Program-made: the position numbers and the translations under genes
The notes under the pieces: model-generated
Told to the model about the DNA's origin: nothing
Seen by the model: the letters and a program-made list of their open reading frames with translations, nothing else
Databases searched by the model: none
Shown here: positions 29,782 to 55,994 of the stretch, one piece after another
Numbering within the stretch: the stretch's first letter is position 1
Layout: the number at the start of each line of letters is the position of its first letter
NCBI GenBank assembly: GCA_949298795.1
Contig: CASFXV010000003.1
Span: forward strand, 1 to 64,000
DNA: 64,000 bases
Source of the DNA: an uncultured bacterium
GTDB lineage: Bacteria > Elusimicrobiota > Elusimicrobia > Elusimicrobiales > Elusimicrobiaceae
Direction: 5' to 3'

Positions 29782-32700
29782 CTACTTAGTAGGAGTACAA
29801 TCTATTTCATTACACGAAACTTCTTGGTTCATACTCTGGGAAGAACGCACTCCTCCAGCATTATAGAACTTCTTAGCGGGATTTGCATCCGGCTTATACT
29901 GCAAGCCATTTGTACATACCAAGTTAACATATTGCTGCAAATCCTTCTTGGCTACTTGTACAGAACTCAAACTCTGGCACTGCCCGGAGAACATGGGCAT
30001 ATACTGCGTTTTATATTTGCCTCTGTACATAGCGGGGGCGGCGCTGTTCCCTACGGGGAAAGAATCCTTGCCGCTGGCTAACGCCCGTAACGGGTACCCG
30101 CCGTGGCCGCTGTTTCTGTTTACAATCTCCGGATTGGTAGAATACGGATACGCGCTGTATTTGCGTTTGCCCGCTACCAAGGAATTATTATACGGAATAT
30201 CCGAAGGATAAATGTCGTTCCCGCGGTTCCAGCCCGGTTTGTTAAAGCGCGGGTTGGCCGTATAATTCTCATCAATAGAGCGGCCGGGATAGAACGCCGC
30301 CGCAGTCGGGCTGACGTACACCGCATACGTACCAAACGTATTTTCAAACCGGCTGTCATTCACGTCCGGATCCACAGACCAAGAGGCCACTTGATGCGCT
30401 AAATAGCATACAGAGTCACCCCGGATAGTGAAGTTCGGATCTTCATCCAACAGTAAAGCCTGCAAGAACACCGCTACCGGAATTTCACCGCTGTGCTGCT
30501 TAATATATTCCTGCACCTCTTGTTGGGTAGGCACAATGATAGTGGGGTCTTGCTCGTGCATTTGCTGGGCTTTTTTAAGCAGCTGGTTTGTAAGAATTTG
30601 GGTATAGCTTTCCACGCATTCCATACAAGAGAACGCATATTTTACAAACAGCTGTCTCATAGTGGCCGCTTCTATATTGGCATTGATGCCATCCGTAGAC
30701 ATACGGTACTTTACGTTAGCCCCTTCAGGAGCTTTGGCACCGCCGCATTTAAACTCATTGGCATAGGCTTTAATTAAAAACCCTAATTCTATGCGCGCCG
30801 TTTTGGAACCACCGGTCGGCTTCGGTTCCGGGTCTGGCTCTTCTTCTGACGGAGGCTCCGGAGTAGGAGGCACGGGCGGGTTGATACTCACTTCATCATA
30901 ATAAGAACATTCCGCAATGCTTACTTCCGTACCCGGCAGACCGGGGCCAATTTCCGTACGGGTTTGTTCCGCGTTGGCGGAAACATGCAACTCCAAGGAT
31001 TCCCCAGGTGCATATTTCCCTTCATTGATACCCTCTACCTGGCGGATAAACCAACGAATGCGAAGCGGCTGCTGCCCTTTCGGGATATTGGTAGCCAATA
31101 CATCCAGCTCCATTCCGCGAGTTTCTGCGCCTACGCGCGCAGCCGTGGTTTTGGCTTTTACCGTGTCACGCTCCACCGTATAGGCAGCCGGCTCATAATG
31201 CCGCACCGAGGTAACACCCTCAAACGTTTTGGAGAACTGCGCTTTGGCAGAGTCCCACACAGAATACATAATGGTGAACTTATCTTTAATTTCGTTATAA
31301 GTTACCTTGTCTCCCGACGCGTTAAGAAGCGTTACACGCGCATAAGGAATTTGGTTCCCGTCTTTTTTCAACATGGCGTTATCTTCGCAAGTAATACGCG
31401 CTAACGGGAATTCACAGCGCGCGCCAATCAGCCAGTCACGCCCCAATTTGCCGGGTTTCGTGCGCATAGCCGCCTTGGTTACCGGGTACATGCCTTCCGA
31501 TTTTACAACAGCGCTCTTGGTGGCATAGGAAACATTGCGTCCGCTGGCCAATAAGCCGATAAACTCGTTATATTTCAAAGGTAAAGAGCGGCTTTCTCTG
31601 ACGGTTTCCCCTTCTTCATTTTTAGTCTTAACAGTTACGTCCAAAGAGCGGGTCCCGTCCGCATTCACTTCAGACTTTAAGTCTTTTTCAAAAGCTACGC
31701 TTTCAATAAACAACGGCACATAACCTGTTTTGTCCGCATATACTTGCGCTTTGGTGCGGAAAACAGGGCCCTCATCCATATAAAAGACTTCCAACATATC
31801 CGCGCGTGCATTTTCCGTAGCTTTATAGTAACGGGCAATGTCCGCAGCTTTTACACCCACCACATAGTGGTAGATGTTCCAATCGCCTTTGCGGTTGCTT
31901 ACAAAGGAAGCCTTATACACGTCTGTAGATGCAAAATCATAGCAACCGCTGACTTCCACCAATTTGCGGCTTGCCTTGCCTTTGTCACCCAAGCCAAATA
32001 AGTTAAAACCTATACAATCGGCGCGGGTTTTCCAAAAGCCGCCGCCGGTTGCTTTGGCACTTTGCCATTCACAACCATATTGTTCTTTGGCTTCTTTGGA
32101 TTTACACCAATCTTTCAAAGACAGCCCCGCCGGTGCGCTGGCCGGAACGGACCCAATCATGGATTTGCCGCATTTGCAGCCTTCCTGCTGGGCACCTTCC
32201 CCGCTGGCGCCAAACATCTCGCCCATGGCGCCGTCGTCTTCGCCGGTAATCAAACAATTAATTAAACCGCCCAAGATGTTTTGAGCCAACTTGTCTGCCC
32301 AGCCAATCCAGTCCCACTTACGGTTAAAGCGTTTTTCCCATTCCATTTGGGAGCGGGTTTTCATCAAATCCCACCACCAAGGGGTAATGCCGTTGTAGCC
32401 AAAGCCGTGTTTCAAATCGCTCGGGCCACCGCCAATGCGGGACTCACCAGAAGCTAAACCGCCTATGCGCCCAGACTTAATGGGAGCATACTGCGCATCG
32501 CGCAGAGCTTGCATAGCATCCCCTTTGGTTAAGGCTTGCATTGAGCGGCGGGCTTGTTCCCCGCTGCCCATGCCAAAATACCCGCGCTGCGGGCGGCCGG
32601 CTGCCTGCAAAGGCTGCAAAGACACCGGTTTAGGCGGCGTTACAGGGGTATCCGCCCCTACTTTTTGAGCCGCGCCTTTTAAGCTGCCCCCCCACGGAGT

Positions 32701-33291
32701 GACATTCAACCCACCTCCGGCAGACGCCATGGCCGCGCGCCCCATTTCTTTAATTTTAGTAGTGGAACGGCGCACAGCCGCACGGGTGGCCGGGGCGGCG
32801 GTTCTTCTGTAAATATTGGTGGTCGTCTTCGTAGTGGGCGAAGAAGTGTAAGAAGAACTGCTGTCTTCTAACGCACTGCGGTCATAATCGTATGAGGAAC
32901 CTTCAGATTCTTCATCACCGCCCCATCCTTTAATCAGGCTTAATGAATCACGCCCAGAAAACTGCGCAATTTCATTTTCCGGATCCGTAATCGCCGTATC
33001 AAAGCCATAGCGTTCCGGGTCAAAAATAGTATCCTCGCTGGAAGGAGCGATGATAGCCTCTTCGTTGACTTGGCCGCTGTATTTATACAAAAACGGCAAC
33101 AACAACAGGGCCACCAACGCCGCAATAAAGAAAGGCGCATCGCGCTTGGTACGCTCAAACAGCGTTTTCTTTGGGCGGCCATTGCTCCCTATCTTAGAGG
33201 AAATACGATTAGCAAAAGATGCAGAAGCAGCCGATTTGCTGTTTTTGATCTTATCGCTAAAGGTAAAACTTTCCTTTTTTCCCTCTGGCAT
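29782..33291 (-). CDS. Very large single-anchored envelope protein of unknown function
   Basis: A 1169-residue protein with no family I recognise. A cytoplasmic N-terminus of about 50 residues is followed by one hydrophobic helix (FFIAALVALLLLPFLYKY), so most of the chain should be periplasmic. Regions in order are Ser/Thr-rich (about 125-170), Gly/Ala-rich (180-290), a Trp-rich patch with WWWDLMK near 305, a Cys-rich part (CKCGKSM and several more), a long beta-rich part, a Pro/Glu-rich linker near 800, and a C-terminal domain with further Cys and many Tyr and Asn. The many Cys residues suggest disulfides; a DsbA-like gene is in block A. It is last in block C and may also have its own promoter. 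Confidence 0.75.
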   Translation of the reverse strand: MPEGKKESFTFSDKIKNSKSAASASFANRISSKIGSNGRPKKTLFERTKRDAPFFIAALVALLLLPFLYKYSGQVNEEAIIAPSSEDTIFDPERYGFDTAITDPENEIAQFSGRDSLSLIKGWGGDEESEGSSYDYDRSALEDSSSSYTSSPTTKTTTNIYRRTAAPATRAAVRRSTTKIKEMGRAAMASAGGGLNVTPWGGSLKGAAQKVGADTPVTPPKPVSLQPLQAAGRPQRGYFGMGSGEQARRSMQALTKGDAMQALRDAQYAPIKSGRIGGLASGESRIGGGPSDLKHGFGYNGITPWWWDLMKTRSQMEWEKRFNRKWDWIGWADKLAQNILGGLINCLITGEDDGAMGEMFGASGEGAQQEGCKCGKSMIGSVPASAPAGLSLKDWCKSKEAKEQYGCEWQSAKATGGGFWKTRADCIGFNLFGLGDKGKASRKLVEVSGCYDFASTDVYKASFVSNRKGDWNIYHYVVGVKAADIARYYKATENARADMLEVFYMDEGPVFRTKAQVYADKTGYVPLFIESVAFEKDLKSEVNADGTRSLDVTVKTKNEEGETVRESRSLPLKYNEFIGLLASGRNVSYATKSAVVKSEGMYPVTKAAMRTKPGKLGRDWLIGARCEFPLARITCEDNAMLKKDGNQIPYARVTLLNASGDKVTYNEIKDKFTIMYSVWDSAKAQFSKTFEGVTSVRHYEPAAYTVERDTVKAKTTAARVGAETRGMELDVLATNIPKGQQPLRIRWFIRQVEGINEGKYAPGESLELHVSANAEQTRTEIGPGLPGTEVSIAECSYYDEVSINPPVPPTPEPPSEEEPDPEPKPTGGSKTARIELGFLIKAYANEFKCGGAKAPEGANVKYRMSTDGINANIEAATMRQLFVKYAFSCMECVESYTQILTNQLLKKAQQMHEQDPTIIVPTQQEVQEYIKQHSGEIPVAVFLQALLLDEDPNFTIRGDSVCYLAHQVASWSVDPDVNDSRFENTFGTYAVYVSPTAAAFYPGRSIDENYTANPRFNKPGWNRGNDIYPSDIPYNNSLVAGKRKYSAYPYSTNPEIVNRNSGHGGYPLRALASGKDSFPVGNSAAPAMYRGKYKTQYMPMFSGQCQSLSSVQVAKKDLQQYVNLVCTNGLQYKPDANPAKKFYNAGGVRSSQSMNQEVSCNEIDCTPTK

Positions 33292-33443: not shown

Positions 33444-33475
33444 ATTATATTAGCAACTGAAACTTAAATAATCAA
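33444..33475 (-). promoter_or_regulatory. Possible internal promoter before the 1169-residue gene
   Basis: A perfect TATAAT (33449-33444) on the minus strand with TTGATT (33475-33470) at a long 20-base spacing, inside the 192-base gap after the 536-residue gene. The gap also holds a short GGATTTTT/AAAAATCC symmetry. Only the -10 is convincing. Confidence 0.35.
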
Positions 33476-33483
33476 GGCCTAAT

Positions 33484-35094
33484 TTAATCCTCATAACTCC
33501 ACCATTGGGAACCGGAAAGATCCGTTTCAGGAAAGAAATCGTTAGGAGTGGAAGACCCTGATGAACCACCCCATACGGGTACGTTAAATGTGCCGTGTAC
33601 ACTTTCGGTAACCTGCTGGTCGGAAAATTGTTCCGGGTTGTAAATGGATAAATCTATCTCTTCACCCTCTGCGGCCGCAGCCTGGTCTTTTAAATATTCC
33701 GCGCACATGCGCTCATATTCGTTCAGTTTGTCATCTAAATTATTGGTGCTGCATTCACCGGCACGGCTGTATTTCAACTGTAAAAAACATTTTTCTCCCA
33801 AAGCATCATAATCCCTTTTTACCTGGGAACAAGCATTGCGCGCCTGCGCTAAAGCAGAGCGCCAATTATTTACTTTGGCGGAATTGGTACAATCAGCCGG
33901 GAAAGCCGGGAAGGTGCCTTGCAGGGCATTAATCATATTTATGACATTACGGGTTAGACTGGTGATTTGGGGGCCTACCGTCCGGGCAGTGTCGTCACAC
34001 TCCTGTTGGCGCCGTTGTTGCTCTTCAGCCGTTTCAATATCCGCCCGAACATCGTCCTCATCTAAGCTGGCTATAGCTATCCCACCGGTGGCGCTAAACA
34101 CTTTTTGGGGCATCTCCTGTGCCATAAATCCAGCCAGCGCCAGTGTTTTCTTTAGCGGAATTTGCTTGGCATACACAGAAGCCTGGCTGGTAAGCCAAAT
34201 ATAGCGAAAGTCAGACAGTGTTTTACCCGCATTATTTAACATCATCATGGAGGAACTGAGCCCTCCCAGTTTTTTGTCCCAATCGGTTGTCTGCTGCAAA
34301 ACTGCTTTTTGAAAAAGCTCGTCCTTCCAGTCCGTCTTAGTGGCCCCCGTTACCCCCACATTGAGCTTTTTTAATCCTAAAGAGGCATCATACCCATCTG
34401 TAGAAATGCGGGAAATTAAAGAAGCGTCTTGCCCATAATACATATCTGTTTTAGCTTGGGAAGAGGCCCGGGCGTCTTTACTGAGTTGGTTTATAGCCCG
34501 GTTAAAGCGAACCTGCCCCTGTTCGGAGTCATCCCCCGTATTTTGGGCAACCCCGGAAATAGAGTCCACCGGTTTGCCTTGCTGACGCAATGAAGCATTA
34601 AGTGCCTGGAAATCAATTAAAGTGGAAGATTCTTCCCCTACAGCCCCATAAGCGGCCGCCCCGCGGTTAATGGCATCAAACCGCCCGGGTTGAGTAGAAA
34701 AGATAGAGTAAGAGTTAGCTGTCACCCGGGCTATAGGCCCGCGTTCATCATCCGCCCAATACAATAATGTCTTTAAGAAAGACATTTCCTGCATTTGCTC
34801 TTCACTGTATCCCATCGCGCGGGCCAAAGAAGACAAAACCGGAATATGGCTTACAGGAACCAAACCACCCACCCCGCCAAAAAATAAAAGAAGCAAGGCT
34901 AAAAGCAAATATTTTTTAGAAAACCATTTTTGCTTAATTGATTTTTCTTCTAGGGGATTAGTATTTCCTTTAATATGTAACGAAAAAGCATCCTCAGGCA
35001 AAGCAGATTTGCCTGCTGGCGTTACATTCTGCTGCACCGGTTTATTTGGAACCGGTGCAGCAGAAGGATTATCCGGCGGAAGTTGATCTACCAT
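33484..35094 (-). CDS. Single-anchored envelope protein of unknown function
   Basis: A 536-residue protein with no recognised family. A Pro/Asn-rich cytoplasmic N-terminus of about 60 residues precedes one helix (YLLLALLLLFFGGVGGL), and the remainder should be periplasmic. It is Gln, Ala and Ser rich, with a Gln/Glu coiled stretch (ETAEEQQRRQQECDD) near 350 followed by six Cys residues in about 110 residues. The C-terminus is Gly/Ser rich and ends in SQWWSYED. It follows the 70-residue gene by 15 bases. Topology matches the 1169-residue protein next to it. Confidence 0.72.
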   Translation of the reverse strand: MVDQLPPDNPSAAPVPNKPVQQNVTPAGKSALPEDAFSLHIKGNTNPLEEKSIKQKWFSKKYLLLALLLLFFGGVGGLVPVSHIPVLSSLARAMGYSEEQMQEMSFLKTLLYWADDERGPIARVTANSYSIFSTQPGRFDAINRGAAAYGAVGEESSTLIDFQALNASLRQQGKPVDSISGVAQNTGDDSEQGQVRFNRAINQLSKDARASSQAKTDMYYGQDASLISRISTDGYDASLGLKKLNVGVTGATKTDWKDELFQKAVLQQTTDWDKKLGGLSSSMMMLNNAGKTLSDFRYIWLTSQASVYAKQIPLKKTLALAGFMAQEMPQKVFSATGGIAIASLDEDDVRADIETAEEQQRRQQECDDTARTVGPQITSLTRNVINMINALQGTFPAFPADCTNSAKVNNWRSALAQARNACSQVKRDYDALGEKCFLQLKYSRAGECSTNNLDDKLNEYERMCAEYLKDQAAAAEGEEIDLSIYNPEQFSDQQVTESVHGTFNVPVWGGSSGSSTPNDFFPETDLSGSQWWSYED

Positions 35095-35109: not shown

Positions 35110-35322
35110 TTATGGGCGGCTGCCGTGCTGATATTGGAACTTTAAGAATTGTTCCTGGCGGGCTTGTCTTTCCGCTTTTTGGGCACGGTATTCATTTAGC
35201 TCACGGGTAGCGTCTTTATATTGGGCATCAAAATAAAGCCAAATGCCAAAACAGGTAACCACAAGCACCACCAGTAAAGCTAAACCAAGAAACCTTCTGA
35301 ATTTGATATCTGCATTTGCCAT
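35110..35322 (-). CDS. Small single-TM coiled-coil protein
   Basis: A 70-residue protein with one helix (FLGLALLVVLVVTCFGIWLYF) and a charged C-terminal helix rich in Arg, Gln and Glu (DATRELNEYRAQKAERQARQ). It has the same layout as the 88-residue protein at 36815-37081, and both directly follow one of the large Gly/Ala-rich proteins. It is tightly spaced, 15 bases on either side, so it is part of the operon. I recognise no family. Confidence 0.7.
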   Translation of the reverse strand: MANADIKFRRFLGLALLVVLVVTCFGIWLYFDAQYKDATRELNEYRAQKAERQARQEQFLKFQYQHGSRP

Positions 35323-35337
35323 AATTTACCTTTATTT

Positions 35338-36795
35338 TTATTTCAACTCGGTATTGGTAATATCGCCGCCATCCTCTTTAAGGGCTTTCCCCTCGCTAAG
35401 GACCTGCTGGCCGGCCCCTGTAATGACGCCTACTCCTGAAGCGGCACCTACGATAGGCGCTCCAAACACCCCATTCAGCCAGCCCGTAAATTTATTAAGA
35501 AGTTTTCCTACCGCTTTAATGTAAGAAATACCAATTAAAGCAAGCAGCGTAGGGCCGACAATCATACAGGCGGTTGTCAGGCCGCTTCCGCCCCATTTCT
35601 TCATATATTTGCCGGCATCCGCCATAAACAGCCCGATGGCTAAAGTCATCAATGCCCCAATAGCGATGGCCGCTACTGTACCCCACGGAGCTTTTCTGAC
35701 CAATGCACTGATAGCAAACATGGCGGGAATGGTTAAGAAAACCAATGCCACCATAGCACGTTTTAAACGGGTGCGGTCTTGTTTGCGCTCCAGTTCTTCT
35801 TCCATTAAATCATCTGTAGCTTGTCCTAAATTCTTGCGGGCGTTAATAGTGGCTTCCTCAAAGTCGTCGGAGATTGCCCCCCCTTCAGATAGTTGTCCGT
35901 CCTCCACCTGTATACCGCCGGAGTTTTGAGAGCTTGCCATAAAGGCTCTGCCCGCCTCATTAGCGGCACGGTATTTATTTTTTGCAATATCTGCAGAGCG
36001 CTTTCTCATCTGTTCCAACGTGCGCCCTTCGCCAGACTCCATACCACGCCCGGCGCGCCCGTTGCGTGAGCCGCCGAAAGAAGCATCCACGTCTCTAAAT
36101 TTAGTACTGGCTACCAGGGTAGACCCCTCCGGCATAGCACCGGATAAGCGGTAGGCTTCCATAGCCGCACTTCCTAAAGAATTGCCGCTTCTATTTACGT
36201 TTCCGCCGGCACCAGCACTGCCGGAACGGGAAGCCCCACCATACGTAACACCGGACACCCCGCCGGAAGCCGTGGCCATGATACCACGCTGCGCCATGGC
36301 CGCCGCCGCGCGGGCTCCTCCGGCAACCCCGGCGTCAACCAAGGCTTTGCCTCCGTTGGAATCTGCTTTTTGCTCTACCACTACAATGTCATTATTTCCG
36401 CCTAACCCCTCGCTGCGTCCAGCCATACCACGAGTGGCAGGGCCTTTACCGGTTCCCAAATTGCCCCCCAGCTTGTCTACGGCAGCCAAGCTGGCGTCAT
36501 CCGCCGCCCAATCATAACCGGCTGAAGCCAAAGCATCCCCGGCAGAAGTTATGCCTTGCGCCCCGGCAATTTGCACCGTTTCCCCCATAGCCTCCGGGCT
36601 GCCCGCCTGACGGCCGTAATCGCTCATGACCGTGCTGCGCACCCGCCCGGCATCTTGCTGGGAAGAAGCTCTGTCGCCAGTAGCATACATCACCCCGACA
36701 GCCGCCGCGCCCAAACCGGCCGTTAACGCTATTTTTTGCGGCAAACCTAGTACAAATTTTCCCGCTTTACTTTTTAAAATATCAAATAGATGCAT
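35338..36795 (-). CDS. Gly/Ala-rich membrane protein, block C paralogue 2
   Basis: A 485-residue protein; the start is the ATG at 36795, right after GGAGGAG (an in-frame TTG overlaps that site). The N-terminus MHLFDILKSKAGK leads into a hydrophobic helix, then about 250 residues rich in Gly, Ala and Ser. Near residue 270 is a block shared with the 516-residue neighbour: ANEAGRAFMASSQNSGGI, then SDDF. Near the C-terminus are three or four hydrophobic segments (VALVFLTIPAMFAISALV and following). The disordered middle between membrane parts suggests a periplasmic tether. No family recognised. Confidence 0.75.
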   Translation of the reverse strand: MHLFDILKSKAGKFVLGLPQKIALTAGLGAAAVGVMYATGDRASSQQDAGRVRSTVMSDYGRQAGSPEAMGETVQIAGAQGITSAGDALASAGYDWAADDASLAAVDKLGGNLGTGKGPATRGMAGRSEGLGGNNDIVVVEQKADSNGGKALVDAGVAGGARAAAAMAQRGIMATASGGVSGVTYGGASRSGSAGAGGNVNRSGNSLGSAAMEAYRLSGAMPEGSTLVASTKFRDVDASFGGSRNGRAGRGMESGEGRTLEQMRKRSADIAKNKYRAANEAGRAFMASSQNSGGIQVEDGQLSEGGAISDDFEEATINARKNLGQATDDLMEEELERKQDRTRLKRAMVALVFLTIPAMFAISALVRKAPWGTVAAIAIGALMTLAIGLFMADAGKYMKKWGGSGLTTACMIVGPTLLALIGISYIKAVGKLLNKFTGWLNGVFGAPIVGAASGVGVITGAGQQVLSEGKALKEDGGDITNTELK

Positions 36796-36814
36796 AAGCT
36801 CCTCCAATACAACC

Positions 36815-37081
36815 TTACTCTCCTGTTACGGCGTTCAAACTTTGATTTGCAGCAGAAGAGTTCATTTGCGTTGAACGCATAAAACTTTGTATGCGCTGCA
36901 TCTCTTCCTGCTTTAATTCATACTCCGCTTCCTGCTTGTCTAAAATAGCTTTATTATGAAAATATCCCATCCAACCAACCAACATCCACGCCAGCCATAC
37001 CAGCCCTATAATGCCATATACCCAAGCGGCACGGTCAAATCTTTTTAGCTCTTTCTCTGTTAAAATCGTCTGTTCTGCCAT
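36815..37081 (-). CDS. Small single-TM coiled-coil protein
   Basis: An 88-residue protein starting at the ATG at 37081 after GGAGGGAGT. One helix (YGIIGLVWLAWMLVGWMGYF) is followed by a charged helical tail (KQEAEYELKQEEMQRIQ). The architecture repeats that of the 70-residue protein 1.5 kb downstream, though the sequences differ. Gaps of 10 and 19 bases join it to the neighbouring large genes. Confidence 0.7.
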   Translation of the reverse strand: MAEQTILTEKELKRFDRAAWVYGIIGLVWLAWMLVGWMGYFHNKAILDKQEAEYELKQEEMQRIQSFMRSTQMNSSAANQSLNAVTGE

Positions 37082-37091
37082 ACTCCCTCCT

Positions 37092-38642
37092 CTAGCGGCC
37101 ATCCGTACGCGTCATATACTGCTGGGCTTGTTCTCTGCTATTGGCACTGGCAGAACGCCCCTCGGATACGTCCAAAGTAGAGCCCGGCTCATTAACCGTG
37201 GAAGTGTCACGCACTGTACTGACGCGGCCTTGTTCGGCAGAATCATCCTCTGCTTTTAGCTTGTCTACAGAAGTCGTCCAACCAAAAGCATCCGCTAACA
37301 TCCAAGGGATCATTGCCCCAAATAAGATTAGACCAAAACCCCCCGCTTTGGCACAAATCCTAAGCTTATTGGCAATTTTCTTACCGGCTTTGGCTTCTTT
37401 GCTGCGGTCTCCATATTTTTCATCATATTCCGCGGCGGCGGCATAGTAATCGTTAAATTTGCCACGCACTGCCAACCACCCTAACCATGGAATGGCACAA
37501 GCAAATGCAAGAAACGTATAGCCTATCAGTTTTCTTAATTTCTTACGCAAATCTTTGCGTTCTTGGCGAAACTGCTCCTCTTCGGTCATTATTTCGTCCA
37601 TAGCGGAACCTACCGCCCCATTAATGCCGGATAAAGAAGCGTCGCCAAAGTCATCCGAACTGGCTCCCTGTCCTACAGAAACCTCTCCTACGCCGTCTAA
37701 ACGGATACCGCCGGAATTTTTTGTACTGGCCATAAAGGCGCGCCCGCCTTCGTTAGCGGAGCGGGTTTCATTACCGGCTATTTCCACAGAACGTTTAGCC
37801 ATTAACTCCAAACTATTAAACTCTTTTGAATTTTGCCGTGGGCGTACATCTGCCCCAAAACTGGGTTTAGCCCGTTGGTTGCGGGCATTGGGAATACGGG
37901 CCCCCTCCTGATCCGGCAAGTAAACCCCGTCCGTACCGGAAGTGATGCCATCGGAACCATTGAAATTTTTACCGGAATCAGCCGCCCCGGGCATGCCCAC
38001 ATATTGAGCCGAACCAGCGGAAGATAAACCAGCCCCCGCCATGGTTCCGCCACTTAAGCCCAGCCCCCCCGCGGCCCCACTGCGTGCAGCGGCGTTGTTC
38101 ACCCCGCTGGCTGCCGCCGCGGCAATAGCATCCGCTTGGAGTTTACCCGCCGTTGCAGCCGCTTGCGCTTGCTGCAAGGCTTGGGCTTGCATGGCTTTAA
38201 TCTGTTCCGGAGAAAAAGATTCCATCTTTTTATTCCCCAACCCTTCGTTTAACCCGCCGACGGAATTAGCCTGTACCGTAGGGGCTGAGGTCTGCGCCTC
38301 ATAGGCGGCGCGTTCTGCCGCTTCACGTTCCAGCTCCTGCTGGCGCAGAAATTCCGCTTCACGCTGTTGCATTTCAATCGCTTTAGAAGGGGCGGCGCGA
38401 AAAGCGCTTTCCGTATATTCTTCCTTGCCATATTGGCCGGTGGCTGCATTGGATACGTAGACCACCTCTTCCTGCGGCTGATAACCTAAAGAACTAAAAG
38501 CATTGTCTGAACTGCCGTCAGAACCTAAAATCTGCCAAGCGGCTATACCGCCTAAGCCCACGGCGGCGGAGGCGGCTATTGCTTGGGTAGCCGAAAGCAT
38601 GGCTTTACCCGCTCTGCTTTTAAAAAAATTAAATAATTTCAT
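37092..38642 (-). CDS. Gly/Ala-rich membrane protein, block C paralogue 1
   Basis: A 516-residue protein; the ATG at 38642 follows GGAGG, and an in-frame TTG overlapping that site is rejected. N-terminus MKLFNFFKSRAGK, then a helix (AASAAVGLGGIAAWQIL). A Glu/Arg/Gln coiled segment lies near 75-100 and a long Ala/Gly/Gln region follows. ANEGGRAFMASTKNSGGI near residue 305 matches the 485-residue protein, and SDDF follows in both. The end has a Lys/Arg-rich patch and two hydrophobic helices (GYTFLAFACAIPWLGWLA and FGLILFGAMIPWMLA). Clearly homologous to its neighbour, with no outside family recognised. Confidence 0.75.
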   Translation of the reverse strand: MKLFNFFKSRAGKAMLSATQAIAASAAVGLGGIAAWQILGSDGSSDNAFSSLGYQPQEEVVYVSNAATGQYGKEEYTESAFRAAPSKAIEMQQREAEFLRQQELEREAAERAAYEAQTSAPTVQANSVGGLNEGLGNKKMESFSPEQIKAMQAQALQQAQAAATAGKLQADAIAAAAASGVNNAAARSGAAGGLGLSGGTMAGAGLSSAGSAQYVGMPGAADSGKNFNGSDGITSGTDGVYLPDQEGARIPNARNQRAKPSFGADVRPRQNSKEFNSLELMAKRSVEIAGNETRSANEGGRAFMASTKNSGGIRLDGVGEVSVGQGASSDDFGDASLSGINGAVGSAMDEIMTEEEQFRQERKDLRKKLRKLIGYTFLAFACAIPWLGWLAVRGKFNDYYAAAAEYDEKYGDRSKEAKAGKKIANKLRICAKAGGFGLILFGAMIPWMLADAFGWTTSVDKLKAEDDSAEQGRVSTVRDTSTVNEPGSTLDVSEGRSASANSREQAQQYMTRTDGR

Positions 38643-38687
38643 ACAAACCTCCAAAAGTGCTCCTATGCCTCAAAACATACTCCGTAT

Positions 38688-39962
38688 TTATTTCTTATTA
38701 TTTTCGCCATCTTTCTTTACCGGGTCTTTATTACTACTTCTGCCATACCCGCTGAAAGCGGGAGCTTCTAAAAAGCCGTTCCCTATCCAATTACCCTGAC
38801 TGCGGGCATGATTATAGGAATCATTTCTAAAAAATGCAGCCCCATCCGGCGTAATGGTATAAGAATTATCAGCTCCTCTGGTTACATAACCTGCTTGTTC
38901 ATAATTGCTAAGGGTGCCCGAACTCCAAGAAGACGGCACACTGTTCCCAGACGACAAATCAGATAAGCTGGCCCCGTATATGTTTTTGGCATAATTATTG
39001 CTTTGGATGCCAGCACCCCACTTGTTCAGCGCGTTGCCAAGTAACTGTTTGCCCAAGTCCAACCCTACTTGTATGGCCCCCTCTAAAAACATGTCCCATA
39101 AACTTTTTTCTTCAGCCAACTGTTTTTTCTCCGCTTTCTCGCGGGCATCAGCCGCGCGATCTTGCATGGTTTTATCCAAATTACTCAAATCCGGGGTTTC
39201 TGCATCAGAATAGTTTACACCGTCACCGACTCCCGCCAACGGAACCCCACTCTCGTTAAAACTGCCTGTACCATCCACATGAGAGCCAAGCAACGCCTTC
39301 CGGGAATCACTCGCCTTATTGGCGCCGCGGGCCGCGGCACGGCTGGCGGCATTAAAACGAGCCAAGGCCTGGCGGGCATTATTCGGATCAACAAAGGGGG
39401 CTTCTTTCCCTTTATCCTCACGCTGGAAGGGAGAAAAATCCCCCTTTATAGTACCGCCAAAAGTGGCAGACGTATTTCCCCCACTGGCCGAGGCCATAGA
39501 CCCGCTGGGAGTAAAAGAGCCTATTTGCGTGGGTGTACGGGCGGAACCGCCTGCCCCGCCGCCGCGGTAGCCAGTGTATGCACTGGAAGAAGACGATGAT
39601 TCATCCGAGGATTCCTTCACTTCTTCTTGCGCTTCTTCTTGTGCGTCCTGCGCCTGGCGGGCAGCCTTCTCTTCTTTAGAATAGATAGCGTTTACGTTGT
39701 TGTTGCGCATATCCGGGTATTTAGAGGCTAGCAAAAACTGCTCCGCCTCGTCATTCACAAAAGGCATTTGGGCTAAATCATAGCCGCGGCCGGACAAATC
39801 ATCAAAAGAATCGTCCGCCCCACTGCCCGAAGCGGCCGCCAATGTAAGCAACGCAACCAACACAACAATGGCAATACCGCCATAGGTATACGCTTGCTTT
39901 TTATCCATATGGTTTAGTTTCTTAAATACTTTGCCAGCCAACGGCGATTTTAAATTAAACAT
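38688..39962 (-). CDS. Single-anchored Ser/Gly-rich envelope protein, first gene of block C
   Basis: A 424-residue protein. The N-terminus MFNLKSPLAGKVFKKLN carries the same KS-AGK type motif as the 485- and 516-residue proteins, followed by one helix (IAIVVLVALLTLAAASG). Next come an acidic Glu/Gln/Ser run near residues 95-125, a Gly/Ser/Thr region, an Ala/Arg-rich stretch (ASRAAARGANKASDSRKALL) and a C-terminal part with many Asn, Ser and Tyr. No C-terminal membrane helices are seen. AAGGACAG precedes the ATG. It is the first gene behind the strong promoter at 40074-40102. Confidence 0.72.
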   Translation of the reverse strand: MFNLKSPLAGKVFKKLNHMDKKQAYTYGGIAIVVLVALLTLAAASGSGADDSFDDLSGRGYDLAQMPFVNDEAEQFLLASKYPDMRNNNVNAIYSKEEKAARQAQDAQEEAQEEVKESSDESSSSSSAYTGYRGGGAGGSARTPTQIGSFTPSGSMASASGGNTSATFGGTIKGDFSPFQREDKGKEAPFVDPNNARQALARFNAASRAAARGANKASDSRKALLGSHVDGTGSFNESGVPLAGVGDGVNYSDAETPDLSNLDKTMQDRAADAREKAEKKQLAEEKSLWDMFLEGAIQVGLDLGKQLLGNALNKWGAGIQSNNYAKNIYGASLSDLSSGNSVPSSWSSGTLSNYEQAGYVTRGADNSYTITPDGAAFFRNDSYNHARSQGNWIGNGFLEAPAFSGYGRSSNKDPVKKDGENNKK

Positions 39963-40073
39963 AAACTGTCCTTTTTACATGATATAAAAATTACTCCTGT
40001 CGGCCCGTACGTCAACAAATACATACGCCCAAACACAGAGTTTCTTATAAATTCCCCTATAGGGTGTACTTTT

Positions 40074-40102
40074 AGTATAAGCAACCAAAAAGGCCTTGTC
40101 AA
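40074..40102 (-). promoter_or_regulatory. Near-consensus promoter of block C
   Basis: TTGACA (40102-40097) and TATACT (40079-40074) on the minus strand, exactly 17 bases apart, the best promoter in the window. Predicted start near 40067, giving a leader of about 105 bases. Confidence 0.8.
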
Positions 40103-40133: not shown

Positions 40134-40667
40134 TTAATCCGGCTGCACATACGGTATGACGCGCTCGTTTTTACCTACAAATTTTTTGACTTCAATCTCT
40201 CCGCCGGTGTCACACAAATATTCATATCCTTTATAGCAGCGGTTGTCCCCTTTGCAGACCTCAAATTTGTCATAATTGCATAAAAAACGAATACGCGGAG
40301 GATTAGTAAAAACCCTTAAAGTAACCAATGTCCAAGTACCGGATACATCCACATTCAGCGTAAAACGCCGCAAACTTAAAAAAGTTTTCATCCCCGTATT
40401 GTTAAAACCCAGGTAATCTTCTACCTTTTTTTTAATATCTTTTTCCAAAAACTGCCTGTTCCAGGTTTGGGCGGAATCCGGCTCACTCCACTGCAGCTGA
40501 TAACGCCTCCCCGCATAAAAAGCGGCAATTTCCATTTTTTGGTTTAAGACAAGCAAGCCAAATATTTTAATAATAAATACCGCAAAAATTACAAACAGCG
40601 GAAACAGAAGGACCACCTCGGTAGTGGCCTGCCCTTTGCGTTTGCGTAAAAAAGATAAATTTATCAT
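40134..40667 (-). CDS. TadE-like pilus assembly protein
   Basis: A 177-residue pseudopilin-like protein of the TadE class. The N-terminal RKRKGQATTEVVLLFPLFVIFAVF has the basic patch, the GQxxxE motif and the hydrophobic helix typical of TadE/TadF minor pilins. The exported part holds four Cys residues in a short stretch (CNYDKFEVCKGDNRC and later). It overlaps the upstream pilin-like gene by four bases and is the last gene of block B. Likely a minor pilin or assembly factor of the Tad pilus. Confidence 0.85.
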   Translation of the reverse strand: MINLSFLRKRKGQATTEVVLLFPLFVIFAVFIIKIFGLLVLNQKMEIAAFYAGRRYQLQWSEPDSAQTWNRQFLEKDIKKKVEDYLGFNNTGMKTFLSLRRFTLNVDVSGTWTLVTLRVFTNPPRIRFLCNYDKFEVCKGDNRCYKGYEYLCDTGGEIEVKKFVGKNERVIPYVQPD

Positions 40668-41776
40668 GAAGGCTGCATCCTCACACTATATTTGGGAAGC
40701 GGGTTGGGCCACACACAATTATTTCCGCTGCGGGGACACTGCAAACCCACTTGGGTACGTACTTTAGGCTTATATTTAACGGTTAAATTAATATCAAAAT
40801 TATTAAGAGGGAGTTGATATCCCTGCTCTAACTTAATGCCGTTGCGCAATTTTTTAAGTTTATCCAAGCTGGAAGAATCCAAATATGCAAATTGAAAAAG
40901 TTTCTTTTTGACGTCAACAGACATATCCAAGTCTACCGGATAGGCACTTGTCATGGTAGTGCCAATATCTTCCGAAAAATACGCCCGTACCTTTTCAATT
41001 TCAAACGGCTTGGACTGCATATTAATATAATTGGCGATAATAGCCGCGCTTTGGCGGGCGCAATCCTGCTGGGTACGGCAAGAAGGAGAGTTTAAGTAAT
41101 ACGCCTCCCTAAACATACGCGCATTACGGGTGGTATCTTGAAAAGAAAAAGTTTGGCTCTGATAAATCTGCCCCAACAACAAATAAACAAGTAGGTATTG
41201 CTGCAGCGTGGGAATACCAATGGTGGTAGAAGGAAAAAAGTTTTCATCCGCTATGGCCTTGCTGGTGAGCACATAACGCCCTTCCTCATCGGGAGATTCG
41301 GAGGGTTGTTCTTTTATCCAATTTTTACGCTTGTCTTGGTAATACGCATAATCCCAATCATCCGACTCTGGCGCCGGGTTTGGATTAAAGCCGGCTTTGT
41401 CTCCGTGATCCGGCCCCAACGCCGGGAAAGCACCCGCTTGATAAAATACGTCAAACACCGTATACTTCCCTCTGGTGCCGGCGGCGCCTTTAGGGGACAA
41501 ATAATCCGAATTATAGCTTTTCATCACCCTATAAGGAGAGTTTCCATTAATATAAGCAAGCGCATTCAAATATACCGTCACAGAAGACATTTGGCTGTAC
41601 ACCGCATTATCCAATGCAAACTGGTTACGAATTTTATACATAGACACTTTAGAGGTTTCAAACAGCAAGTAAATAACCAATATAAAAATGGGAGCCAGCA
41701 ACACCGCCGGGAGCAGTACCTGCGCCCGGTTATTGCTTATGGTCTTTTTACATGCTTTCCCTAAAATGCCCAGCAT
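40664..41776 (-). CDS. Pilin-like anchored protein, TadG/TadF-type
   Basis: A 370-residue protein with a TadE/TadG-style N-terminus: basic residues, then NRAQVLLPAVLLAPIFILVIYLLFE, followed by a helical stretch in which a pilin stem would continue. The long exported part has Tyr-rich and Cys-containing regions (PSCRTQQDCARQ). No von Willebrand domain is seen, so it is not a standard TadG. It starts two bases after the end of a short Flp-like gene and overlaps the TadE gene downstream, which makes a three-gene minor pilin set. Confidence 0.72.
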   Translation of the reverse strand: MLGILGKACKKTISNNRAQVLLPAVLLAPIFILVIYLLFETSKVSMYKIRNQFALDNAVYSQMSSVTVYLNALAYINGNSPYRVMKSYNSDYLSPKGAAGTRGKYTVFDVFYQAGAFPALGPDHGDKAGFNPNPAPESDDWDYAYYQDKRKNWIKEQPSESPDEEGRYVLTSKAIADENFFPSTTIGIPTLQQYLLVYLLLGQIYQSQTFSFQDTTRNARMFREAYYLNSPSCRTQQDCARQSAAIIANYINMQSKPFEIEKVRAYFSEDIGTTMTSAYPVDLDMSVDVKKKLFQFAYLDSSSLDKLKKLRNGIKLEQGYQLPLNNFDINLTVKYKPKVRTQVGLQCPRSGNNCVWPNPLPKYSVRMQPS

Positions 41777-41778
41777 AC

Positions 41779-41955
41779 TCAGTACCCCATCAGCATTCCT
41801 ATAAACGAAAAGAAAATACGCACAATGTCTTTATTAAAAAGCATAATAAAAGCAGAAAACAGGGTAAGTACTGTCCCCAACATCAGAACATACTCTATAG
41901 TAGCCTGGCCGCTTTGGCCTGCTAAACCTGTTTTGCGCTTTTGCTTTGCAGACAT
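41779..41955 (-). CDS. Short Flp-type pilin
   Basis: A 58-residue reading frame starting at the ATG at 41955. Residues 16-40 read GQATIEYVLMLGTVLTLFSA and onward, the Flp pilin signature (Gly before the cleavage site, Glu at +5, then Tyr, then the hydrophobic core). The basic leader AKQKRKTGLAGQS fits the part removed by a prepilin peptidase. It lies six bases after the NarL-type regulator gene and two bases before the TadG-like gene. It is a third Flp-type gene in the locus and is easily missed because of its length. Confidence 0.8.
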   Translation of the reverse strand: MSAKQKRKTGLAGQSGQATIEYVLMLGTVLTLFSAFIMLFNKDIVRIFFSFIGMLMGY

Positions 41956-48160: not shown

Positions 48161-49525
48161 TTAACGTATACCGGTTAACTCTTCCACTTTCTGCAAGCCG
48201 ATGGCCGCATCGGAGTTGCCCGGGTCTAACTGCACGGCCTGCACCCATGCGGCGCGGGCCCGCTCGTAATCATCCTGAGTAAAAGCGTCCAACCCTTCTA
48301 CGTATTTCTGACGGGAAGCCGCCCGCGCTTCTTCCGATACCTGGCCCGTGGTAGGAGCCAATTCTGGCAAAGTTTCATTTACGCCCACCGTTTCAGGCAA
48401 GGGCTCCGCCGGTTCCGGCTTTACTTCCGGCTGGGTAGTAACAGAAGTGGATTCAATCACCTCTTCCACAATATTGCCCTGGGCGTCCTTCGTGCGTTTT
48501 ACAGAGCGGAACTTCTTTTCTTGGGCAATACGCAAAGCGTTTTCTTTGGCGTTGCGGGCTTTCTTAATCCAAGAATCCATCTCCGCCGTATTGGAACCCC
48601 ACTTTTTGGCTTTCGTCCAATAAGCGATGGCGGAATCGTACTTTCCGCCGCCATACGCTTTGCTGCCCGCATTGGCATAACCGTTATAAATCTCATCTTT
48701 CAGCTGCATCATGTATTTTTGTACGCGCTGATCGCCCGGCTGGATTTTCATAATCCGTTCAAATACAGAGTAAGCTTCCACGTATTGGCCTTGGTTATAA
48801 TAGGCCATGGCCTTTTCCATATATTCCTGTACCTGTTGCTTGCGCACCACGTTTTCCGTTTGGGAAATCTTCGTCACCAAGCTGGCGTCCTCTTTGCGAA
48901 TCATGAGTGCGTTATACCAATTATCCAACGCTTTTTGATAGTCTCCCGCGTCATAAGCCCTGTCGCCGCGGCGTACATATTCGCCCGCAATGTCAGCGGT
49001 GATTTTACGTTTCCAAGTCATCGCTTTGCTGTTTCCGGGGCGAATGGTTAAAATTTCGTCTAATTTTTGGTTTGCCTCTACCAGGCGTCCGCTGTCATAT
49101 AAACGCAGGGCCTCTTGAAATTTAGCCTCTATTACTTGGGACTCTGACACCGTACCGTAAGTCCCCATATGATTGGCTTGCAACGCCAAAGTTTGGGCCT
49201 GGGTAAAGTTTGGGTCAATGCTTAAAATGGTTTGGGCCAATTCCTGTGCGCGCTGGTAGTCCCCCTGTTTATATAATTGATACGCGTTTTCATATACCAT
49301 ACGCAAGGTATAATTTTGAATACGCTGCTTTTCCAACTGAACGGTAGAAAGGTATTGTTTGCGTTCTTCCACATCATTTAAGGTTCCTAAGGAAATCTTG
49401 CTTAAATCCAACAGCATGCCGGCTTCCTTACCATGTTGGCGAACCGGAATTTCCCGCAAAACCGGAGCGGCTATTGTTGGAAACGCCACTGCAGCACACA
49501 AAACCAATAAAAAATATTTTTTCAT
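48161..49525 (-). CDS. Exported TPR protein of the Tad locus (TadD-like position)
   Basis: A 454-residue protein with a signal peptide (MKKYFLLVLCAAVAFPTIAA) and at least six TPR-like units (YKQGDYQRAQELAQTILSID, YDSGRLVEANQKL and others), ending in a unit LDAFTQDDYERARAAW. The signal peptide lacks a good lipobox, unlike the TadD pilotin, so the TadD role is only suggested by its place after tadC. A Thr/Pro/Glu linker lies near residue 365-400. Confidence 0.8.
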   Translation of the reverse strand: MKKYFLLVLCAAVAFPTIAAPVLREIPVRQHGKEAGMLLDLSKISLGTLNDVEERKQYLSTVQLEKQRIQNYTLRMVYENAYQLYKQGDYQRAQELAQTILSIDPNFTQAQTLALQANHMGTYGTVSESQVIEAKFQEALRLYDSGRLVEANQKLDEILTIRPGNSKAMTWKRKITADIAGEYVRRGDRAYDAGDYQKALDNWYNALMIRKEDASLVTKISQTENVVRKQQVQEYMEKAMAYYNQGQYVEAYSVFERIMKIQPGDQRVQKYMMQLKDEIYNGYANAGSKAYGGGKYDSAIAYWTKAKKWGSNTAEMDSWIKKARNAKENALRIAQEKKFRSVKRTKDAQGNIVEEVIESTSVTTQPEVKPEPAEPLPETVGVNETLPELAPTTGQVSEEARAASRQKYVEGLDAFTQDDYERARAAWVQAVQLDPGNSDAAIGLQKVEELTGIR

Positions 49526-49537
49526 AAGATATCCTCT

Positions 49538-50431
49538 TTAAAAACTAAGCCCGCCCGCCAGTAGGCCTTTCACCATGGGGGCAAGAATTAAAATAAAAAT
49601 CGTCGGGAAAATAAAGAAAAACAACGGAAACAACATCTTGGTAGACGCTTGCGCCGCTAACTTTTCCGCCAGGCTTAAACGACGAGAGCGTAAGTCCGTA
49701 GAAAAGTTGCGCAGCAAATCCACCAAGCTGGTACCTAATTCATCGGACTGTTTAATCAGCCCCACCAATGAGCGAATTTCCTGCACCCCCGTTCTAGCGG
49801 AAAAACGGTCCAGCGCTTCACGCCGTGAATAACCTAATTTAATCTCATTAATGGTTTTCTCTAATTCCTCTTCCAAAACGGTTTTTTCTTTGGCGATTTT
49901 AATAATACGCTCAAAAGCGGTTAAATAATCCAAACCAGACTCAATAATCAAAGCGGCCAAATCCACCGTGGTAGAAAAGTTACCCAATATCTCCGCCTGA
50001 CGTTTTTGTATTTTACTCTTTAACATCAAGTCCGGCAAATAAAAACCTACAGGAAAGGCTATTATCGTTATCAAAAAACTTTGGAAAATAATCAAAGCGC
50101 CTACCGGAAAGGCGATAGCCAACCCCACTTTAAGATACAAAATATCTACCGGCTGCGGAGTATCCGGGCTGCCCAGCTGCAGGTGCATTTCTTCCAACGA
50201 TTTTTCCAAATGAAAAGTATGCAGAAAAAACAATGCCAAACGGTCAAAAAATTTATCCGGGTTTAATTTGGAAAAACTGGACGTGGATTTAAAACGGCGT
50301 ACGGCAACGTCCACCAGCTCCTCTTTTTCTTCTTTAGGAGACAGCAACGCCAACACCCCGATAAATAAAGCGATGGTGCCAATAATTGCACAAAAGCCTA
50401 ATAATAAGCGCAAACCTAATGATACTTCCAT
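49538..50431 (-). CDS. tadC: Tad pilus inner-membrane platform protein TadC
   Basis: A 297-residue type II secretion F-domain protein. Hydrophobic helices lie at the N-terminus (LLLGFCAIIGTIALFIGVLALL), near 100-130 (two adjacent) and at the C-terminus (FPLFFFIFPTIFILILAPMV). The cytoplasmic F domain holds SGLDYLTAFERI and QSDELGTSL. It forms the platform with TadB that the ATPase acts on. It overlaps the end of tadB by one base, and the neighbours fix the assignment. Confidence 0.9.
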   Translation of the reverse strand: MEVSLGLRLLLGFCAIIGTIALFIGVLALLSPKEEKEELVDVAVRRFKSTSSFSKLNPDKFFDRLALFFLHTFHLEKSLEEMHLQLGSPDTPQPVDILYLKVGLAIAFPVGALIIFQSFLITIIAFPVGFYLPDLMLKSKIQKRQAEILGNFSTTVDLAALIIESGLDYLTAFERIIKIAKEKTVLEEELEKTINEIKLGYSRREALDRFSARTGVQEIRSLVGLIKQSDELGTSLVDLLRNFSTDLRSRRLSLAEKLAAQASTKMLFPLFFFIFPTIFILILAPMVKGLLAGGLSF

Positions 50432-52116
50432 TATACTTTCACCTCGCCTATCTTTCTAATAATCTTCATGCCGATGGAAATCCACACAATACAGAAAAAG
50501 AATACCATCATACCCCCCGGGCTGCCATAAAAAGAAACCATTTCTCCCGGGCGGAAAAGAAACATAACGCCCATCATCAAAAACGGCATTACGCAAACCA
50601 CAATGGCCTGGATTTTTTGCTGGGCCGTCATAGCCTGCAGCTTTTCTTCCAGCTTGCTTTCTTCCCGGATATTTTCCACCAAGCGGGCAAAAATAACCGT
50701 TAAGTTACCGCCGACCTGCCGCTGAATAACAATGGCTTTGATAATATAGCTTAACATGCGGCTGTCTATGCGGTCGTTCATGCCGTCTAACGCTTTTTCA
50801 AAAGGAGTACCCAACTGATAATTTTTAATCACCAGGCCAAATTCATCCGAAATGGGCGGGCGCATTTCCGTAGAGACTTTTTCAAACCCCTGCACAATAT
50901 CCATACCGGAACGCAGCGAGTTTGAAAGTAAAATCAGCGCGTCCATCAGCTGGGCATTAATTTTGCGCCCGCGCGCTTTTTTAAGGGAATCCAACACCGC
51001 TTCCGGCATACGGATACTGGCAAATACCCCAATGCCCACAAACACCAAAAAGGAAAATAAGCCGCCAAATCCGCCCATACTAAAACCCGCAAATAACCCC
51101 AGCAACGCAAAAAGGCCTATCGTACCAAAAACAATATACCGGATATCTATCGTTAAAAACTGTCTGTTAAAATCTTCCGCCCAAGCCACACTTTTTACGC
51201 GGTAATCTTCCATCATCAGTTCAATGCTTTGCCGTTTGACCTCTAAAAATAAAAATACCGCCAAACCCGCCAAGGCACTGCCAATAATCAGCATAACCAA
51301 ATACATCATTTTGTCAGCGGCTGTCGTTTGTATGGCTTTAGGATCCGGCGGGAAAGTAGGAATAGCGCTAGACATAAACTCCGCATACAGCTGATTGGAG
51401 AAAACCACCACCGCCTGAACCGCTTTGCGGTATTTATCATCCCGCTCTTTGGAAGGAGCGGAGAAAGATTCTATGGTGCTGAAAAATTCATTATTAATTA
51501 ACTCTAACGTGGCCAGCATGGCGCGCCCGCGGCCGCCCATACTGTCTTTCATAATTAAAGGTTTGGAACCAAACAACAAATCTTTATTTAAGCGGTCCAG
51601 CGTAGCCACTAAATTGATACGGTTCCCCACATAACCGCGCACCAACTGATCTATAGAAATAGGCTGAGAAGGGTCCATAGACATAGCCGCCCGGTCCAAA
51701 TACAAATAAACGTTAGAAAACGCCTGGCGCCACAAATCCGCCTCGCTGTAAGTTCCTTCGCCGGGAATATAAACCACTTTGGTCTTATCCATCCGGTCCA
51801 GCTCCGGCTCTTTATGAACGGTTACTATTTGCCCGTTCGCGTCTTTTGTTTTTACGTCTTCCCCCTCCACAAACCACTTAGGCGGCTTTACCACCGTGCC
51901 GGCGTTCGGGCAAGAAGAAGGCAATTCCTGCGTTTTCTTGTTAAGAGGAACTTTTGCATCAAACATTTCCGCCAAAATGCGCATTTTTTCTTTGGCGCAT
52001 TCTATGCGGTTCTTATCCGCTTTGCCCAACCCCCGGGCCAATACAGGCGCCGGAGCCCCAACTAAGCCCAAGGAAAAAACAGCAATCAAAGCAAAAAATA
52101 AAAAATTCTTCTTCAT
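50431..52116 (-). CDS. tadB: TadB-like platform protein with an exported N-terminal extension
   Basis: A 561-residue protein. The C-terminal half (about 285-561) is a standard TadB: paired helices near 285-355, the F domain (LSNSLRSGMDIVQGFEKVS, then RQVGGNLTVIF), and two C-terminal helices. The first half is unusual: a signal-peptide-like start (MKKNFLFFALIAVFSLGL) and about 240 residues with two Cys and mixed charge before the first platform helix. TadB proteins are normally near 300 residues. The added domain should be periplasmic and might contact the secretin or pilins. It follows the fusion ATPase gene by 13 bases. Confidence 0.88.
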   Translation of the reverse strand: MKKNFLFFALIAVFSLGLVGAPAPVLARGLGKADKNRIECAKEKMRILAEMFDAKVPLNKKTQELPSSCPNAGTVVKPPKWFVEGEDVKTKDANGQIVTVHKEPELDRMDKTKVVYIPGEGTYSEADLWRQAFSNVYLYLDRAAMSMDPSQPISIDQLVRGYVGNRINLVATLDRLNKDLLFGSKPLIMKDSMGGRGRAMLATLELINNEFFSTIESFSAPSKERDDKYRKAVQAVVVFSNQLYAEFMSSAIPTFPPDPKAIQTTAADKMMYLVMLIIGSALAGLAVFLFLEVKRQSIELMMEDYRVKSVAWAEDFNRQFLTIDIRYIVFGTIGLFALLGLFAGFSMGGFGGLFSFLVFVGIGVFASIRMPEAVLDSLKKARGRKINAQLMDALILLSNSLRSGMDIVQGFEKVSTEMRPPISDEFGLVIKNYQLGTPFEKALDGMNDRIDSRMLSYIIKAIVIQRQVGGNLTVIFARLVENIREESKLEEKLQAMTAQQKIQAIVVCVMPFLMMGVMFLFRPGEMVSFYGSPGGMMVFFFCIVWISIGMKIIRKIGEVKV

Positions 52117-52129
52117 TTCAAACTCCGTT

Positions 52130-54439: not shown

Positions 54440-54444
54440 AATTG

Positions 54445-55191
54445 TTACTCAACAACCTCTACCGTTACAAACAGGAACAAAGAACGTTGGTCTTCCGTTA
54501 CGTCTTTGCTCTTAAAGAATAACCCGATTAAAGGCAAACGGCCTAAAAACGGCACCCGGTCTTCCGACACGTTGCGGCTGCTGCTTTTTAAGCCCCCGAT
54601 AACCAAGGTTTCCCCGCTGTTAAGCTCTACATGGGTTTGCACCAAACGTTCCAAAATAGAGTAAGAAGTGGAGGTACCAATCATAATCGCGCGGGAATAG
54701 TCCGGCTGGGATACTTTCAATTCCAGCTGCAAGTCAATAATATTGCCGCGTTCGGGGATGATAGTAGGGGTTACGTTTAGCAATACGCCATACGTTTCCA
54801 TCTGCGTACCCACGGCCCCTTGGCTGTTCACCACAGGGTAAGGAATACGCCCCCCTACGGAAATATTGGCCTGGTTGCCGGAACTGGTGACAATTTTAGG
54901 GTTAGATAAAATTTGGGCGCGGCCCTCATTCTCCATCAGTCTAAGACGGGTGGCCACCGCCGTTTTACGTTCAAAATCGCCCAGTGAAAAAATACCCGGG
55001 ATGGCGGCCTCTTCAAAGTCAAAGATTTGGTTCCACGCAAAACCTTTAACTGAGCTCATGGAGCCGGCAATTTCAACCACGTCTGCACTTACGGACACCA
55101 AACGGGTCTTTTTTGCGTACGCACACGGGGCCAACATGGCCACCACCAACACGGCTGCGGATATTCTAGTAATAAAGTTCATTTTTATCAT
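54445..55191 (-). CDS. Minimal secretin (RcpA/CpaC-type pore domain only)
   Basis: A 248-residue protein with a signal peptide ending in CAYA and only the secretin beta-domain: EGRAQILSNPKIVTSSGNQANISVGG, then VLLNVTPTI, GETLVIGGL and the closing VPFLGRLPLIGLFF. Tad secretins normally carry BON/N0/N1 domains in front and are about twice this length. About 40 residues separate the signal peptide from the pore domain here. The 12-base gap to cpaB leaves no room for a lost N-terminal part, so the short form appears genuine. Confidence 0.88.
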   Translation of the reverse strand: MIKMNFITRISAAVLVVAMLAPCAYAKKTRLVSVSADVVEIAGSMSSVKGFAWNQIFDFEEAAIPGIFSLGDFERKTAVATRLRLMENEGRAQILSNPKIVTSSGNQANISVGGRIPYPVVNSQGAVGTQMETYGVLLNVTPTIIPERGNIIDLQLELKVSQPDYSRAIMIGTSTSYSILERLVQTHVELNSGETLVIGGLKSSSRNVSEDRVPFLGRLPLIGLFFKSKDVTEDQRSLFLFVTVEVVE

Positions 55192-55203
55192 GATGATTCC
55201 TAT

Positions 55204-55956: not shown

Positions 55957-55994
55957 AAATTCTCCTTAAAACGCTGTCAATTATAAATAAAAAT

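What the first reader, a model, noticed from the sequence alone, without database searches (positions are those of the whole stretch)
35338..39962. Repeated module: large KS-AGK proteins paired with tiny membrane coiled-coil proteins
The 516- and 485-residue proteins share the start KS(R/K)AGK and a block ANE(G/A)GRAFMAS(T/S)xNSGGI followed by SDDF, so they are paralogues. Each is followed by a small protein with one helix and a charged coiled tail (88 and 70 residues). The 424-residue protein has a related start (KSPLAGK). The operon therefore appears to have grown by duplication of a large-plus-small unit, and the conserved block is a good candidate for a binding site.
Basis: seen in the sequence. 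Interest (0 to 1): 0.78.

Follow-up and report, generated by a model that had tools for sequence, protein, structure and literature searches.

The report
Elusimicrobia pilus-linked membrane protein module
Two related large membrane proteins and their two small membrane partners, next to a pilus gene cluster, turn out to belong to an undescribed set of cell-envelope genes that recurs across the bacterial class Elusimicrobia, copies its parts in tandem and, in this bacterial family, carries a conserved folded RNA leader, although what it does is still unknown.

Summary
The core observation is real. The 516- and 485-residue proteins (KA, KB) are full-length paralogues: hhalign 100%, E 5e-55; shared block z=16 over composition-preserving shuffles. 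Each is followed by a small one-helix protein. The "KSPLAGK" start of the 424-residue protein is a coincidence, absent from its orthologues; the 424 protein is probably a distant relative, but through the block region.

The genes end a Tad/Flp pilus locus in an Elusimicrobiales bacterium. Profile chains show a conserved envelope module B(424)-K-K-P(536)-Big across class Elusimicrobia, fused to tad in some lineages and a separate operon in family f2. In a 150-genome sample it occurs only where this tad TadE-like gene occurs. The large-plus-small unit is specific to the window's family, one or two per operon; relatives lost one small gene or the other, only the window's clade keeps both. Growth by unit duplication is supported, though gene conversion blurs its timing.

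Upstream lies an invariant promoter and a new covarying RNA hairpin (42 copies, 11 compensatory pairs, no Rfam match) that follows the module when it moves.

Structure predictions were uninformative; large-small contact was not testable. Function is inferred: a membrane-anchored periplasmic scaffold working with Tad pili.

The parts
40074..40102 (-). Promoter TTGACA-N17-TATACT of the module, identical hexamers and spacing in all 14 aligned loci
   Evidence: 0 mismatches; about 0.15 matches expected per window at up to 1 mismatch
39972..40046 (-). Structured RNA leader (long imperfect hairpin, 18 pairs) between promoter and the 424-aa gene
   Evidence: no Rfam match
38688..39962 (-). B protein (424 aa): N-terminal membrane helix and periplasmic region with RGYDLAQMPF.NDEAEQYLLASKYPDM; present in 4 genera, distant relative in f2
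37092..38642 (-). KA (516 aa): N-terminal helix, about 300-aa Cys-free Gly/Ala/Ser-rich region, conserved block, C-terminal helices
37647..37811 (-). Conserved block of KA (residues 278-332: LELMAKRSVEIAGNETRSANEGGRAFMASTKNSGG...SSDDF)
36815..37081 (-). sA (88 aa): one membrane helix plus charged, probably coiled-coil, tail; C-terminal NAV(T/D) motif shared with orthologues
35338..36795 (-). KB (485 aa): paralogue of KA, usually three C-terminal helices
35860..36018 (-). Conserved block of KB (residues 260-312)
35110..35322 (-). sB (70 aa): one membrane helix plus charged tail; orthologous to the small gene of clade 2
33484..35094 (-). P protein (536 aa): N-terminal membrane helix and helical domain with conserved Cys
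29782..33291 (-). Big protein (1169 aa): conserved basic N-terminus, one membrane helix, RDSLSLIKG motif, Cys-containing domain
40134..41955 (-). Upstream Flp-like pilin (41779-41955), TadG-like (40664-41776) and TadE-like (40134-40667) genes
48161..56483 (-). Tad core: TadE (55995), RcpC (55204), secretin (54445), TadZ-TadA fusion (52130), two T2SSF platform proteins (50431, 49538), TPR protein (48161)

Best explanation
KA and KB belong to a previously unnamed family (K) of inner-membrane-anchored proteins. Each has an N-in helix, a long flexible Cys-free periplasmic stretch carrying one conserved block, and a C-terminal bundle of helices that returns to the membrane. With B (424), P (536) and Big (1169) they form a conserved envelope module of class Elusimicrobia. 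In the window's family each K gained a small one-helix partner with a coiled tail, and the operon grew and shrank by K-s units. Most likely mechanism (inferred): K, B, P, Big and s make a periplasmic scaffold, anchored in the inner membrane, that joins or gates the Tad pilus machine between its inner-membrane platform and its secretin. The conserved block is the docking site and the small coiled tails set the pairing or number of K subunits. Transcription starts at a dedicated promoter, and an RNA hairpin in the leader adjusts expression of the module separately from the pilin genes. Shown: paralogy, module conservation, unit gain and loss, co-occurrence with the tad TadE-like gene, conserved promoter and RNA structure. 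Inferred: topology, complex formation, regulation and function.
For: Paralogy. Conserved order Flp-TadG-TadE-B-KA-(s)-KB-(s)-P-Big-TPR in about 20 genus loci. Module kept together after leaving the tad locus in g15. Same module B-K-K-P-Big as its own operon in f2 and inside tad loci of f7 and g14. Profile chain with column-shuffle nulls: Kg1~Kg15 score 160 against null maximum 43, Kg15~g14 74 against 52, g14~f7 121 against 74; f2B~424 98.3%, f2P~536 85%, f2Big~Big 95%, f2K1~Kg15 98.2%. Phylogenetic profile in 150 genomes: K found by profile or locus reading in 66 of 69 genomes with this TadE-like gene and in 0 of 81 without. N-flank about +3 and negative C-flank at the first helix of B, KA, KB. 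Invariant promoter and covarying leader.
Against: In f2 and in g12 the module is not linked to tad, so it may act on its own. Co-occurrence may only reflect class ancestry, since Tad core genes occur in other classes of the phylum without K. No fold, no domain match and no multimer prediction support a scaffold. The flanks of the C-terminal helices do not settle topology. Small partners are absent in f2 and single small genes are lost freely, so they cannot be essential to every K.
Confidence: 0.45

Rival explanations
1. A stand-alone envelope complex (surface, shape or adhesion function) that does not work with the Tad pilus; it sits next to tad only in some lineages.
For: Separate operon, unlinked to tad, in f2 genomes; dispersed in the single-contig genome G091, with B-K-s, P, Big and tad at four places.
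Against: Profile co-occurrence with the tad TadE-like gene, with absence from the 5 class genomes of the sample that lack it (f3, f4, f6, f9); fusion to tad in f1, f7, f8 and f5 loci.
Confidence: 0.3
2. Non-canonical minor pilins or a pilus-tip complex, comparable in role to TadEFG/KilLMN tips: N-terminal helix plus large exposed region, several interchangeable copies.
For: Position directly after the TadG- and TadE-like genes; N-terminal helix with basic flank; tandem diversification resembling the four Kil tip clusters (PMC12075869).
Against: No prepilin site: no Glu at +5 after a Gly and no Pfam pilin match; K proteins have 2-4 further C-terminal helices, which a pilus subunit should not have.
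Confidence: 0.12
3. Effector-immunity pairs: large membrane-active effector followed by a small membrane immunity protein, duplicated as units.
For: Large-small pairing, unit duplication, link to a Tad machine of the kind used for contact killing in Myxococcus.
Against: Small genes are lost while the large gene stays, in both directions, which an immunity gene should not allow; the module is conserved in order across a class; no toxin domain.
Confidence: 0.06
4. The resemblance is low-complexity Gly/Ala/Ser convergence.
For: Central regions are about 40-47% Gly+Ala+Ser.
Against: 0 of 300 composition-preserving shuffles reach the score, for the block and for the N-terminus; block conserved in about 48 orthologues.
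Confidence: 0.01

Closest known systems
Tad/Flp (type IVc) pilus system
   Same: The locus holds RcpC, secretin, TadZ-TadA, TadB/C-type platform proteins, TPR protein, TadE-like, TadG-like and Flp-like genes; Tad systems in Elusimicrobia were already reported (PMC6668835)
   Different: B, K, s, P and Big match no described Tad component and no Pfam or NCBIfam family
Myxococcus Kil Tad system with tip complexes KilLMN
   Same: Large accessory proteins next to TadE/G genes, present as several related sets
   Different: Kil tips are processed minor pilins with a pilin fold; K proteins lack a prepilin site and have extra C-terminal membrane helices
Inner-membrane alignment subcomplexes of type IV pili and T2SS (PilN/PilO, GspL/GspM)
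   Same: Bitopic proteins with coiled periplasmic tails, as in s (T2SSM was the best weak Pfam hit of s70, E 0.019, below cut-off)
   Different: No significant profile match; K architecture is different

Membership tests
Tad/Flp pilus locus | TadA-type ATPase, TadB/C platform, secretin, RcpC, Flp/TadE genes | tested here: met
   T2SSE E 3e-63 with CbiA/ParA N-terminus, two T2SSF proteins, Secretin 3e-41, RcpC 2e-19, TadE 4e-11; TadA model 1.8e-99 (below its strict cut-off)
Tad/Flp pilus locus | K, B, s, P or Big match a known Tad component | tested here: not met
   No Pfam, NCBIfam or PDB family at significance
Class III / type IV prepilins | Gly followed at +5 by Glu at the start of the N-terminal helix | tested here: not met
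   No such site in KA/KB orthologues
PilN/PilO, GspL/GspM | Significant profile match | tested here: not met
   T2SSM only at E 0.019, below gathering
Kil tip complex (TadEFG-like) | Pilin fold and heterotrimer | tested here: inconclusive
   Model of KA has mean pLDDT 42; complexes could not be predicted
Effector-immunity pair | Obligate retention of the small gene with the large one | tested here: not met
   KB without s in the main clade, KA without s in clade 2
Known riboswitch or leader RNA | Match to an Rfam family | tested here: not met
   nothing near a gathering score

The most novel reading that the evidence does not exclude
A previously undescribed envelope machine of class Elusimicrobia (B-K-K-P-Big plus small coiled subunits), built by repeated duplication of one ancestral membrane protein, works with the Tad pilus and, in one family, is controlled by a new cis-regulatory RNA that moves with its genes.
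Probability: 0.35. Interest if true: 0.75.

Novelty: new variant of a known kind. Interest (0 to 1): 0.55.

Why it matters
Tad loci are usually described by a fixed set of core genes. Here a whole class of bacteria carries a second conserved module that occurs with this tad type, has no database family, and changes by tandem duplication of recognisable units. The stepwise alignments make the family searchable, and the covarying leader RNA gives an independent handle (a new regulatory RNA candidate) on when the module is made.

Tried and rejected
Relatedness of the 424 protein through its KSPLAGK start: rejected. Pairwise homology of the two small proteins: not significant; profile links are weak and coiled-coil composition may inflate them. 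AlphaFold2 of KA with 7 sequences and of P with 3 gave mean pLDDT 42 and 41, so no fold search was run. PDB profile searches found nothing. One old duplication shared by KA and the K1 genes of g15 is rejected by the tree (AU p about 3e-69), but gene conversion and long branches could mimic repeated duplication, so independent origins are not claimed as proven. Early searches with genus-level profiles missed f2 and g14 altogether: absence by those profiles was not real absence. A direct link between the g1 block and the g1 424 region fails (27 of 60 nulls as high); the link holds only through sister genera and f2, and the regions compared were chosen by eye.

Full report
Check of the observation. 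The minus-strand ORFs exist as described. KA (516 aa) and KB (485 aa) are full-length paralogues: local score 295 against a windowed-shuffle mean of 88 (0/300 as high), the block alone 160 against 34, the N-terminus 75 against 28; profile-profile E 4.6e-55. The 424-aa protein shows no such similarity (z<1), and its orthologues start MFKLKPGNVFQK, so the KSPLAGK resemblance is chance. The 88- and 70-aa proteins are not alike pairwise.

Setting. The window lies in a genome whose near relatives are catalogued as Elusimicrobiales. Upstream are Tad core genes, two-component genes, then Flp-like, TadG-like and TadE-like genes, followed by 424-KA-s88-KB-s70-536-1169-TPR. This order holds in about 20 genus loci, and KA/KB pairs were found throughout the genus.

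Units. In most of the genus only the small gene after KA is present; in a second clade (L025, L027, L031, L033, L038) only the one after KB; in the window's clade both. Orthologue profiles tie s88 to the first kind (hhalign 94%) and s70 to the second (97%), and the two kinds weakly to each other (79%). In sister genus g15 the module has one K-s unit or two. The large-plus-small unit is therefore a real unit of gain and loss, but small genes are lost without their large neighbour.

Reach. g14 carries at least four K-type proteins after its TadE-like gene. Profiles built from those and from f7 loci found K genes in all 15 f2 genomes sampled, most as a tandem pair, in an operon of its own: 400-aa protein, B, K, K, P, Big. 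Profile comparisons against column-shuffled nulls link each member to its window counterpart, and B to K through the element ending in LK.NDPSLN.

Age of duplication. Trees group KA with KB and the g15 copies with one another. Either duplication happened repeatedly or gene conversion homogenises tandem copies; L063 K1 has a K1-type N-terminus and a K2-type block, which suggests conversion does occur.

Link to Tad. In 150 genomes across the phylum, K was found by profile or by reading the locus in 66 of the 69 with the tad TadE-like gene and in none of the other 81. Of the three left, G186 (f5) has K-type architecture in its tad locus without a profile match; G111 and G093 have no K call. Tad core genes alone (RcpC) also occur in other classes without K, so ancestry explains part of this.

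Leader RNA. Between the TadE-like gene and the 424 gene all 14 aligned loci share TTGACA-N17-TATACT, followed by a hairpin with 97.5% paired cells and 8 pairs changed on both sides. A covariance model found 42 copies in four genera: before the 424-type genes, both copies where there are two, also where the module has left the tad locus, and before Big in G091. On these, 95.8% of cells pair, 11 of 18 pairs show double changes and the covariation score is 0.56 against 0.24 in shuffles and at most 0.15 in slid controls (that alignment was fitted to the model, so it leans towards it). Rfam has no match. f2 loci show none. That it regulates anything is inference.

Mechanism. Basic N-flank and acidic C-flank of the first helix put the Cys-free, Gly/Ala/Ser-rich middle in the periplasm and the K ends in the inner membrane. 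I infer a periplasmic scaffold joined to the Tad machine, with the block as docking site and small coiled tails as pairing subunits. This is inference; structure predictions were uninformative.

Noticed in passing
window 39972-40102 (-): Invariant promoter and a covarying RNA hairpin leader before the 424-aa gene, 42 copies in four genera, no Rfam family.
   Followed up: yes
window 33292-33483 (-): The gap before Big also carries a conserved leader in the genus: a TTGAAA...TATAAT-type promoter and a GTTGTTACGGAGTGGG..CCATCTCTGAACAAC hairpin (main clade), different in sequence from the first; the window copy scores only E 0.86 with the leader model.
   Followed up: partly
L065 12147-12241: In G091 a copy of the 424-gene leader RNA stands before Big, 65 kb away from B-K-s.
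   Followed up: partly
L063 3685-7581: K1 has the N-terminus of K1-type genes but a block like K2-type genes, which suggests gene conversion between tandem copies.
   Followed up: partly
L086 2-8947, L088 4507-11154, L090 7921-18000: Very large ORFs (2,200 to 3,360 aa) downstream of the tad TadE-like gene in f2 genomes, possible surface proteins.
   Followed up: no
L091 15237-16862, L097 15688-17403, L109 4023-5648: A 540-600 aa protein with two N-terminal helices (e.g. ..WYLAGVEENTRRYI..) follows the TadE-like gene in f2, f5, f7 and f8 but was not seen in the window's family.
   Followed up: no
window 52130-54439 (-): TadZ-like and TadA ATPase domains are fused in one 769-aa protein.
   Followed up: no
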